NCBI GenBank assembly: GCA_948099385.1
Contig: CANUEZ040000168.1
Span: 1,117,501 to 1,181,500, forward strand
DNA from: Fasciola hepatica
Lineage: Eukaryota > Platyhelminthes > Trematoda > Plagiorchiida > Fasciolidae
Direction of reading: 5' to 3'
Length of the DNA stretch: 64,000 nt
The notes under the pieces were generated by a model. That model did not search any database. It was not told the DNA's origin and was given only the letters and a program-made list of their open reading frames with translations. Below are positions 53,038 to 56,060 of this stretch, piece after piece; the first letter of the stretch is position 1, and each line of letters opens with the position of its first letter. A program made the translations under genes and the position numbers.

Positions 53038-54379
53038 CCCAGTTGTACTCTTCCCGTCATTGGAATCAAAACGCATCACGCTCATCTACCGAAGTTTTCA
53101 CCTGATGAAACATTTTCCTGATGTTGGAGCACAAGGCCACTCTACCAACTCCGAAAGGGCACAAAACTGCGATCAGTGGCGTGGTCCAGACAAGCTCTTG
53201 TAGTAGGCGATTGTTCAACGACTTGCCCCGGAACTTCACTGCAGAGTCGAACACCGCCTGCAGTTTTTCGGGCTCCTTGGAGTTCATAACCGGGAGGTGA
53301 GGTGGATACCAGGTCCCCTCCCGGCCGTCGGTGGTAACAGGCACCCTTTCAACATAGCCGAGAGCAATTTTTCGCCTCGCTAATTTAGCATATCTTTCCC
53401 ATAGATCCTGGTCTCGAACGAAGCGTTCTTTCAGCCAAAGTAGCCTTTGAAGATCATAGTTTCTCTTTTCAAACCAGGGGTCACCTGGTTTTCGCCATGG
53501 GGGGGAAACTTTGGACTGCTTTTTAAGGCTCCTAGTTCCTTGCCGCACTAATTGCAGAGCGAAGTGGTCCTCCTGCGACAAAGATAGTCTCTCTTCTCCG
53601 ATGTCCTGAAACTCCCTTTCATACAGCCGCTGTAATTGATGCTCTACACGGCTCATTTCGACTGATACGCAATTCACAAAACCACTTCCCCCTACTGGAC
53701 CACATAATATTCACCTTGGTGCAGTGCTTAGGACTTAAGGAACCTGGCTGTTGCCCACTCTCTGGTCAGGTACCCAATGTGCCTCTGGCACGTCGCAGCC
53801 GATGAGGGGGTCCACTTTTTCGTCCTCCCAGTCTACAACCGTTACGTCCTGCAGGTGAGGCCACTTGGTCAAAACTGCGTTCACCGACCCTAGTGCTCGC
53901 ACGGAGGGGTCAGCTAGTTAAAAGGCCTACATTGAGTCTATTTGCTCGGCAGTGTCTAAGAAGACGAGCTGTAACCGCAACTGGCCGGCAGTCATTACCT
54001 GTGTTCCGCCCACCGTGCTCACTGCCAACGACGTCGCACTTTTAGCGAGTCGGTGTTTGTCGGCAAACCGCTCCTTCACCAGAGTAGTGTCTGATCAACT
54101 GTCGACGAAAGCAAACGCTTCGACCATCCCGGTTGTGGTCACCACTCCCACAGAAACTACGCCTTAACGCACTGGTTTACTGTCAGACCACGATGCTGAA
54201 CAAACAACACGGGGATTGGTGTTCGTCTCTGGGATATCGTCTCTCGCCTGGTGTAACAATCGATGGTGTCTTCCAGAGCAATCCCCGTGACCACATCTGG
54301 CCTTTGTTCGGCAAGCTGCCGCCCGGTGCTTGGTGCTGAGGCATATAAAGCACGCTCCTGTCGTCCTCGCCATTCCCCA
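53038..54379 (-). pseudogene. BEL-A zinc knuckle, protease and RT N-terminal part
   Basis: From 54373 leftward: MARTTGACFICLSTKHRAAAC (split zinc knuckle C-x2-C-x4-H-x4-C) and RCGHGDCSGRHHRLLH. A protease region follows with VEAFAFVDS then a stop, and IGCDVPEAHW. An ORF at 53677-53066 gives SRVEHQLQRLYEREFQDIGEERLSLSQEDH, QGTRSLKKQSKVSPPWRK, KLQAVFDSAVKFRGKSLN and VALCSNIRKMFHQVK. These are the BEL/Pao segments before the RT palm. It ends at the LINE-F junction. Stops in the protease are shared with the other arm. Confidence 0.87.
53286..54379 (-). repeat. Left arm of the 1,094-bp BEL inverted repeat
   Basis: It is the reverse complement of 54967-56060, with no indel and only a few substitutions noticed (for example near 53304, 53800 and 54020). 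The arm spans zinc knuckle, protease and the start of RT. Outward of it BEL-A simply continues, so the left arm is in its native context. Confidence 0.93.
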
Positions 54380-54966
54380 ACTTTCGTCTTTTGCGGCGTT
54401 GATGAACTTGGGGTATTTTAGTAGCCCATGGTTAGCATCACAGGACCGTTCAAAGTAGCCCGTAACCTAATAGAGTGCGTGATGGTAGAGGCAAAGAGAA
54501 CCAAGGGAGACGTCTACTCAATGGGTGACCTGGTGATTAAGATGCACAACTGCTCAATAGCCCTCGACCATTTAGGTTACAGGGCTGACCTAGATGCCAT
54601 GCGCACTTTGGAAAACATAGTCCGCCAACTCTCTCCCGAACTACAGGGTCGGTGGGCGGAAGAAGCAGAACGGATAAGCCGAAGCGACAGGGAAGCTAAC
54701 TTCGGAGACCTGACCGAATACTTGGACAGGCAAACCAAGATAGCCGACAGCAGATTCGGTCGGCTTATCCGGGACAGCAAACGAGCAAACAAGCCCAGTA
54801 CTAGCCAAGCTCAAACCACTGCTCGGGAACATCCAAAATATCAATCTTGGACCAATGCACACGCCATTTCACGCGGTGCCACGGCGCAACCAAATTGCAG
54901 ATCCTGTGATGCTAGCCACGGACTACAGAATGCCCCAAGTTCGGCAAAGCCACCATAGGCGAACGG
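54380..54966 (+). other. Spacer of the BEL inverted repeat (gag-coding)
   Basis: 587 unique bases between the arms. From 54428 it carries the BEL gag reading frame on the plus strand. 54380-54427 shows no similarity to the rest of the window. The gag frame passes smoothly into the right arm, so the discontinuity lies at the left edge (54379/54380). Confidence 0.85.
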
Positions 54967-55182
54967 TGGGGAATGGCGAGGACGACAGGAGCGTGCTTTA
55001 TATGCCTCAGCACCAAGCACCGGGCGGCAGCTTGCCGAACAAAGGCCAGATGTGGTCACGGGGATTGCTCTGGAAGACACCATCGATTGTTACACCAGGC
55101 GAGAGACGATATCCCAGAGACGAACACCAATCCCCGTGTTGTTTGTTCAGCATCGTGGTCTGACAGTAAACCAGTGCGTTAA
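54428..55182 (+). pseudogene. BEL-B gag with zinc knuckle
   Basis: VSITGPFKVARNLIECVMVEAKR, VIKMHNCSIALDHLGYRADLDAMRTLENIVRQLSP and DLTEYLDRQTKIADSRFGRLI (54428-54780) have the DUF1759-like BEL/Pao gag character. After 54900 it reads CDASHGLQN, a one-base frameshift, then CPKFGKATIGERWGMARTTGACFICLST, completing the zinc motif C-F-I-C...H...C and CGHGDCSGRHHRLLH. The frame ends at 55182. Gag would form the particle and bind RNA through the knuckle. Confidence 0.83.
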
Positions 55183-56060
55183 GGCGTAGTTTCTGTGGGA
55201 GTGGTGACCACAACCGGGATGGTCGAAGCGTTTGCTTTCGTCGACAGTTGATCAGACACTACTCTGGTGAAGGAGCGGTTTGCCGACAAACACCGACTCG
55301 CTAAAAGTGCGACGTCGTTGGCAGTGAGCACAGTGGGCGGAACACAGGTAATGACTGCCGGCCAGTTGCGGTTACAGCTCGTCTTCTTAGACACTGCCGA
55401 GCAAATAGACTCAATGTAGGCCTTTTAACTAGCTGACCCCTCCGTGCGAGCACTAGGGTCGGTGAACGCAGTTTTGACCAAGTGGCCTCGCCTGCAGGAC
55501 GTAACGGTTGTAGACTGGGAGGACGAAAAAGTGGACCACCTCATCGGCTGCGACGTGCCAGAGGCACATTGGGTACCTGACCAGAGAGTGGGCAACAGCC
55601 AGGTTCCTTAAGTCCTAAGCACTGCACCAAGGTGAATATTATGTGGTCCAGTAGGGGGAAGTGGTTTTGTGAATTGCGTATCAGTCGAAATGAGCCGTGT
55701 AGAGCATCAATTACAGCGGCTGTATGAAAGGGAGTTTCAGGACATCGGAGAAGAGAGACTATCTTTGTCGCAGGAGGACCACTTCGCTCTGCAATTAGTG
55801 CGGCAAGGAACTAGGAGCCTTAAAAAGCAGTCCAAAGTTTCCCCCCCATGGCGAAAACCAGGTGACCCCTGGTTTGAAAAGAGAAACTATGATCTTCAAA
55901 GGCTACTTTGGCTGAAAGAACGCTTCGTTCGAGACCAGGATCTATGGGAAAGATATGCTAAATTAGCGAGGCGAAAAATTGCTCTCGGCTATGTTGAAAG
56001 GGTGCCTGTTACCACCGACGGCCGGGAGGGGACCTGGTATCCACCTCACCACCCGGTTAT
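54967..56060 (+). repeat. Right arm of the 1,094-bp BEL inverted repeat
   Basis: It is the inverted near-copy of 53286-54379. Its right end falls exactly where the sequence jumps from ggttat to a second protease copy, so the right arm is bounded by a recombination joint while the left arm is not. Confidence 0.93.

What the first reader, a model, noticed from the sequence alone, without database searches (positions are those of the whole stretch)
53286..56060. Near-perfect 1,094-bp inverted repeat joining two BEL/Pao elements head to head
Seen: 53286-54379 and 54967-56060 are reverse complements with equal length and only a few substitutions, while the rest of BEL-A and BEL-B is much more diverged. 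The gag frame runs smoothly into the right arm, and BEL-A continues smoothly from the left arm. Inference: the structure arose by a recent inverted duplication, a fold-back during reverse transcription, or gene conversion between arms.
Basis: partly seen in the sequence, partly recalled or inferred. Interest (0 to 1): 0.85.

Follow-up and report, generated by a model that had tools for sequence, protein, structure and literature searches.

The report
Repair scar between two dead retrotransposons
Two decayed mobile elements sit head to head in what looks like flatworm DNA, and about 1.1 kb of one was copied fairly recently into the other, most likely while a broken chromosome was mended; the feature is real in the sequence but ordinary in kind.

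Summary
53286-54379 and 54967-56060 are reverse complements with 4 mismatches in 1,094, while flanking BEL-A and BEL-B sequence is 77-81% identical.

(1) The right arm is followed by an 833-bp direct repeat of its own protease/RT part, 78% alike. (2) The first 127 bp of that repeat (56065-56191) are again BEL-A-like (2 mismatches), then revert to BEL-B; against one close relative, site support flips from 10:1 to 1:18. (3) A 219-bp integrase patch has 217 identical; it is less secure.

The left arm's six in-frame stops recur at the same places in the right arm; one, at the protease active site, recurs in BEL-B too. So copying most likely followed decay, at DNA level. Best model: a break in BEL-B repaired from BEL-A, entering in register, copying too far, and joined with almost no shared sequence.

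An assembly chimera is not excluded: there were no reads, and the own-genome search did not complete in 12 tries. Host unnamed; protease relatives with names are all flukes (7 of 8; one unnamed). Interest is low.

The parts
53282..54379 (-). Left arm: zinc-knuckle/protease/start of RT of BEL-A, in register with BEL-A on its outer side and with diverged zinc-knuckle sequence on its inner side; probable donor
   Evidence: 5 mismatches in 1,098 to the right arm; six in-frame stops
54380..54445 (-). Inner continuation of BEL-A (first zinc knuckle), ordinary divergence from BEL-B
   Evidence: 79% over 63 columns against 54902-54963; windows 13/20 and 16/20
54425..54958 (+). Truncated gag-side ORF of BEL-B, 177 aa, most of the spacer; called gag from its place before the zinc knuckles, no family match
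   Evidence: ORF; no Pfam match up to E = 1
54967..56064 (+). Right arm: inverted copy of 53282-54379 with the same six stops; probable recipient tract
56065..56191 (+). Second, short BEL-A-like stretch at the start of the direct repeat, carrying the same TGA in the protease motif (56082-56084)
   Evidence: 125 of 127 identical to 54114-53988; best run 116 columns with 1 mismatch, 0 of 2,000 shuffles reached it; 10:1 against 1:18 site test
55232..56064 (+). First unit of the 833-bp direct repeat (A-type)
   Evidence: 77.9% over 837 columns to 56065-56897
56065..56897 (+). Second unit of the direct repeat (A-type to 56191, then B-type)
56192..60891 (+). BEL-B proper: rest of protease, RT, Pao-type A17 region, integrase; decayed by several stops
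   Evidence: Peptidase_A17 E=1.3e-27 and 3.3e-13, Integrase_H2C2 E=6.1e-6; homology to BEL-A ends near 60891
53037..53281 (-). BEL-A RT, continuing from the left arm
   Evidence: 53037-54114 is 77.8% to 57143-56065
41060..41200 (-). BEL-A, second piece
   Evidence: 78.9% to 57296-57155
33037..36454 (-). BEL-A, third piece (RT to integrase)
   Evidence: 80.7% over 3,403 columns to 57301-60891
34575..34793 (-). BEL-A side of the integrase identity patch
   Evidence: 217 of 219, 0 of 2,000 shuffles; fourfold sites do not separate it from its surroundings
58987..59205 (+). BEL-B side of the integrase identity patch, with a TGA shared by both elements
41201..53036 (-). Stretch that interrupts BEL-A, with two LINE-type elements
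   Evidence: RT and endonuclease domains in 43589-46324 and 48475-51453
36455..41059 (.). Second stretch that interrupts BEL-A; shares a repeat with 9575-11455 in inverted orientation
   Evidence: 86-91% segments

Best explanation
Two related BEL/Pao retrotransposons, both truncated at the gag end, lie head to head. After they had decayed, DNA of BEL-A was copied into BEL-B. Shown: A-type sequence enters BEL-B in register at 54966/54967 and runs about 1.1 kb; at 56064/56065 it meets, with about 1 bp in common, a second A-type stretch of 127 bp that passes in register into B-type sequence at 56191/56192. Inferred: a break in BEL-B's protease; both broken ends paired with BEL-A and copied it, the left one for about 1.1 kb, the right one for at least 127 bp; the two products overlapped by about 830 bp but were joined end to end instead of annealed. 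This left a direct repeat inside BEL-B and a near-perfect inverted repeat with BEL-A. The integrase patch hints that the two elements exchanged sequence elsewhere too.
For: Arms 5 mismatches in 1,098 against a 77-81% background. The left arm is in register with BEL-A on both sides, the right arm only on its inner side. Six stops at identical places in both arms; the TGA in the protease motif is also in BEL-B, and all 7 of the 8 relatives that cover the site have glycine there. Site support in BEL-B flips from 10:1 (43 codons) to 1:18 (70 codons) at 56191/56192, Fisher p=3.8e-6. Third positions 40/41 and fourfold sites 23/24 identical in that patch against 70/110 and 23/36 beyond it, so protein conservation does not explain it. 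Divergence of the three tracts (5/1,099, 2/127, 2/219) does not differ, p=0.26.
Against: No reads, no other copies of the family and no allele were seen. The break and the two-sided copying are inferred. The limits of the patch were set after looking, and the site test rests on one relative; one of its ten supporting sites is the stop itself. Two of the five arm differences lie within 14 bp of the join and match BEL-B, so a short return to a B-type template is possible. About 1 bp of shared sequence at the join is less than the microhomology or added bases always seen in the mouse study. The integrase patch may be conservation: fourfold sites 34/35 inside against 28/32 beside it. Stops shared by many copies of a defective but mobile family would give the same pattern.
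Confidence: 0.52

Rival explanations
1. Assembly chimera: the right arm, the direct repeat or the head-to-head join was made by an assembler switching between repeat copies.
For: Repeat-dense window; in-register switches between related copies are what repeat-driven misassembly gives; nothing about reads or assembly was available, and the own-genome search gave no answer in 12 tries.
Against: The arms are not identical: 5 differences, of which comparison with BEL-B in the alignment makes 2 derived on the right and 2 on the left. The arms are separated by a 587-bp spacer and do not meet at a point, as a simple read fold-back would. Three tracts have similar divergence.
Confidence: 0.2
2. In-register gene conversion of BEL-B by BEL-A first, then a separate unequal exchange between two differently converted alleles, which made the 833-bp direct repeat.
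For: Both outer limits of the A-type region in BEL-B (54967 and 56191) are in register; the last 14 bp before the join match BEL-B at two sites where the left arm differs.
Against: The two repeat units are only 78% alike, so it is no simple doubling; it needs two differently converted alleles and a join without homology, hence more events.
Confidence: 0.13
3. Template switching during reverse transcription between two co-packaged BEL RNAs, so that BEL-B was already a mosaic when it inserted.
For: Recombination between packaged RNAs is usual for retroelements (general knowledge) and gives in-register switches.
Against: The donor would carry six in-frame stops in 366 codons. The donor-like copy lies a few hundred bases away in the same locus. 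A jump back of about 830 bp is needed as well.
Confidence: 0.1
4. Plain recent inverted duplication of a 1.1-kb block of BEL-A into BEL-B.
For: Near-identical arms.
Against: The inner edge lies exactly in register with BEL-B's own zinc knuckle, and the second A-type stretch at 56065-56191 is unexplained.
Confidence: 0.05

Closest known systems
Sinbad, Pao/BEL element of Schistosoma mansoni (PMC554778; abstract and passages seen)
   Same: Order zinc knuckles, protease, RT, integrase; triple Cys-His pattern and LIGCD protease motif, read here by eye; its copy in one BAC was also disrupted by stops and frameshifts
   Different: Sinbad has two identical 386-bp LTRs; the elements here are truncated, without recognised LTRs, and joined head to head
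Homologous copying ended by end joining, with template switching (PMC5104497; abstract and sections 4 and 9 read)
   Same: Entry by homology, copying beyond the break (one tract there was 1,249 bp), joining to the second end without annealing, complex breakpoints
   Different: There microhomology or added bases were always used; here about 1 bp is shared and none is added. There the event was induced and watched; here it is inferred, and donor and recipient differ by about 20%
Inverted duplications by fold-back near inverted repeats in yeast (PMC10622511; abstract seen)
   Same: Break near inverted repeats leads to inverted copies
   Different: There the whole chromosome end is duplicated and a dicentric forms; here a 1.1-kb tract ends inside the partner element
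Mu killer of maize (PMC3440606; start of abstract seen in the listing)
   Same: Partial inverted duplication of a transposon; a transcript across it would fold into a long hairpin
   Different: Nothing is known here of a transcript, small RNAs or silencing

Membership tests
BEL/Pao LTR retrotransposon (BEL-B) | Pao-type Peptidase_A17 region | tested here: met
   E=1.3e-27 in 57124-57870 and 3.3e-13 in 57871-58512, above the curated cut-off
BEL/Pao LTR retrotransposon (BEL-B) | Reverse transcriptase | tested here: met
   57124-57870 finds 639 relatives, several of the 120 listed with PF00078, and holds FYVDD by eye; no RVT_1 match of the piece itself in Pfam
BEL/Pao LTR retrotransposon (BEL-B) | Integrase | tested here: met
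   Integrase_H2C2 E=6.1e-6, 26.7 bits against a cut-off of 25.5; zf-H2C2 just under its cut-off; core domain and DDE spacing not tested
BEL/Pao LTR retrotransposon (right arm with its upstream part) | Triple Cys-His box | tested here: met
   By eye against the patterns quoted in PMC554778; the first box is split by a frameshift, the second and third lie in A-type sequence
BEL/Pao LTR retrotransposon | Gag domain | tested here: inconclusive
   54425-54958 has no Pfam match up to E=1
BEL/Pao LTR retrotransposon | Pair of LTRs | tested here: not met
   No similarity between the flanks beyond the 3' ends of A (28001-33300) and B (60601-64000) except the coding end itself; both elements are truncated at the 5' side, so they are filed as fragments of such elements
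Gene conversion tract | Local identity far above background, ending in register | tested here: met
   Inner edge 54967 and outer limit 56191 in register; but the tract is interrupted by an out-of-register join at 56065
Gene conversion tract | Unidirectional transfer shown by an outgroup | tested here: met
   10:1 inside, 1:18 outside with P0241; one relative only, protease patch only
Copying ended by end joining | Non-homologous join to the second end | tested here: met
   About 1 bp in common at 56064/56065, direct repeat of 833 bp
Hairpin silencing locus (Mu killer type) | Transcript across both arms and small RNAs from them | not testable with these tools
   No RNA data at hand

The most novel reading that the evidence does not exclude
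The 1.1-kb near-perfect inverted repeat with its 587-bp spacer works as a hairpin locus: a transcript across it folds into long dsRNA and feeds siRNAs against live BEL elements, in an animal of a group that has lost the Piwi pathway and whose flatworm-type Argonaute was reported bound to siRNAs from LINE and LTR elements (PMC8191739, passages seen). It would be an animal counterpart of Mu killer. Nothing here supports transcription; nothing excludes it.
Probability: 0.04. Interest if true: 0.65.

Novelty: new member of a known kind. Interest (0 to 1): 0.22.

Why it matters
It is a readable record of recombination between two diverged, inverted copies of a dead retroelement: entry by homology, over-copying, and joining with almost no homology, with one element's stop codons carried into the other. 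It shows that shared disabling mutations in neighbouring copies need not mean common descent, which matters when elements are dated or sorted into families. It would matter more if the inverted repeat were transcribed.

Tried and rejected
Plain inverted duplication of a 1.1-kb block: rejected as the full account because of the second A-type stretch and the direct repeat.

Protein conservation as the cause of the short patches: unlikely for the protease patch (fourfold sites 23/24 against 23/36), not excluded for the integrase patch (34/35 against 28/32 beside it; overall 217/219 against 68/84 and 179/209).

Patchiness of repeats in general: five segments from three other repeat pairs of the window served as controls. 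Shuffles that reached the observed best run: 147, 1,966, 775, 18 and 840 of 2,000. So one control (LINE 14775/48187) was borderline. In the RT-integrase comparison the best run left after taking out the main patch scored 63, close to the highest null value of 65, so smaller patches may exist.

LTRs: the two 3' flanks share nothing beyond the coding end. tRNA and Rfam scans: 0 and 0. Viral contigs: 2 pattern matches, none a relative. Gag by Pfam: no match. Insertion-site duplications around the pieces of BEL-A: looked at by eye, none evident.

Papers: searches found no paper holding all terms; some searches gave lists. PMC2583991 was opened for passages; the term sought stood only in its reference list. 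No search could be made for a report of this locus, whose species is unknown.

Full report
Observation. The inverted repeat is present at the stated coordinates: 4 mismatches in 1,094 bases without gaps. Its inner edge is sharp at 54379/54380 and 54966/54967, where identity falls to the usual level between the two elements. Its outer edge lies at 53281-53282 / 56064-56065. The spacer between the near-identical arms is 587 bp (54380-54966); about 65 bp at each of its ends is the ordinary, diverged A/B homology (79% over 63 columns).

What the two elements are. BEL-B runs on the + strand: a truncated gag-side ORF at 54425-54958 (no Pfam match), zinc knuckles (by eye), protease and RT (by relatives), a Pao-type Peptidase_A17 region (E=1.3e-27 and 3.3e-13) and an integrase zinc domain (E=6.1e-6). 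BEL-A runs on the - strand in three pieces, 54445-53037, 41200-41060 and 36454-33037, whose partners in BEL-B are nearly contiguous: 56065-57143, 57155-57296 and 57301-60891. Of the DNA between the pieces, 41201-53036 holds two LINE-type elements with endonuclease and RT domains, and 36455-41059 holds another repeat, also present inverted at 9575-11455. No LTR was recognised for either BEL element.

Host. Of the 8 relatives of the protease/RT piece, 7 are named, all from flukes (5 Echinostoma caproni, 1 Paragonimus westermani, 1 Schistosoma bovis; that these are digeneans is recalled); the closest, P0241, 86% over 45% of the query, is unnamed. The RT piece has 639 relatives, and the named ones among the 120 listed include corals, fishes, a sea urchin, a clam and flukes. 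The LINE has 343 relatives, and the named ones among the 120 listed are a stork record and Dicrocoelium. The window is probably flatworm DNA; this was not established.

The right arm is followed by a second copy of protease and early RT: 55232-56064 and 56065-56897 align at 77.9% over 837 columns. The first 127 bp of the second copy (56065-56191) match BEL-A at 125 of 127 positions (alignment); after that the match falls to 63-77% over the next 200 bp or so. With P0241 as reference, in the 43 codons of this stretch BEL-B sides with BEL-A against P0241 at 10 sites and with P0241 against BEL-A at 1; in the 70 codons beyond, the counts are 1 and 18 (Fisher p=3.8e-6). The limits were set after seeing the alignment, the test rests on one relative, one of the 10 sites is the shared stop, and the single contrary site is the codon at the join itself. 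A further patch, 58987-59205 against 34793-34575, has 217 of 219 identical. Neither patch was reached in 2,000 codon-block shuffles; five control segments from three other repeat pairs gave 147, 1,966, 775, 18 and 840 of 2,000. The integrase patch is the weaker: its surroundings are 68/84 and 179/209 identical, and fourfold sites do not separate it (34/35 against 28/32).

Direction and timing. The left arm is in register with BEL-A on its outer side and with the diverged zinc knuckle on its inner side; the right arm is in register only on its inner side. Both arms carry six in-frame stops at the same places. One, TGA in the protease active-site motif, is also in BEL-B at 56082-56084. Of the 8 relatives, 7 cover that site and all 7 have glycine there. 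The integrase patch also carries a TGA in both elements. Copying therefore most likely followed decay, from A to B. Of the 5 differences between the arms over 1,098 bp, comparison with BEL-B in the alignment makes 2 derived on the right (55332, 55490), 2 derived on the left (53285, 53295) and 1 unresolved (53808/55538). The two on the left lie in the last 14 bp before the join and both match BEL-B, so a short return to a B-type template there is an alternative. Divergences of 5/1,099, 2/127 and 2/219 do not differ (p=0.26).

Mechanism. A break in the protease of BEL-B, with both ends pairing with BEL-A, accounts for what lies between 54967 and 56191. The left end copied about 1.1 kb; the right end copied at least 127 bp the other way; the products overlapped by about 830 bp but were joined at 56064/56065 with about 1 bp in common. 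Shown: the anatomy, the relationships and the shared stops. Inferred: the break, the two-sided copying and the joining. Hartlerode and colleagues describe such copying ended by end joining, with homologous template switches, in mouse cells; they always found microhomology or added bases at the join, which is weaker here. [quoted passage not shown] Fold-back synthesis near inverted repeats is described in yeast (PMC10622511, abstract).

The head-to-head join. BEL-A ends at about 54445, and BEL-B's ORF begins at or before that point. The bases around 54436-54447 read plausibly both as the end of A's zinc knuckle and as the start of B's ORF, which suggests a join at shared sequence. No relative of this ORF was at hand to test it.

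Limits. No reads, no assembly graph, and no answer from the own-genome search in 12 tries, so an assembly chimera keeps about one chance in five.

Noticed in passing
523-5928: Direct repeats 523-963 and 5072-5928 (98.1% over 257 and 99.5% over 197) look like the LTRs of a young element; the right one is split by about 0.4 kb that carries 69-bp inverted ends (97%). Inside lies an ORF 3307-5091 (-) with RVT_1.
   Followed up: partly
43589-47945 and 48475-52559 (-): Two LINE-type elements with long open frames (911 and 992 aa, endonuclease and RT domains), each with a second ORF upstream that has no Pfam match.
   Followed up: partly
14775-15635 and 48187-49046: LINE copies 83% alike overall, with the first 200 bp or so at 92-95%; 18 of 2,000 shuffles reached the best run. 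Possibly another exchange tract, or a conserved LINE end.
   Followed up: partly
9575-11455 and 38465-41060: Another inverted repeat pair, 86-91% alike, evenly diverged; one copy lies inside the DNA that interrupts BEL-A.
   Followed up: partly
17601-18227 (+): Piece of a MULE-type transposase, PF10551 E=7.4e-12.
   Followed up: no
19663-19732, 26871-26962, 27920-27978: Three short self-complementary simple-repeat stretches, 87-100% alike in both orientations.
   Followed up: no
59143-59145 and its BEL-A partner: A TGA shared by both elements inside the integrase patch; whether it is older than both elements or was exchanged was not settled.
   Followed up: partly
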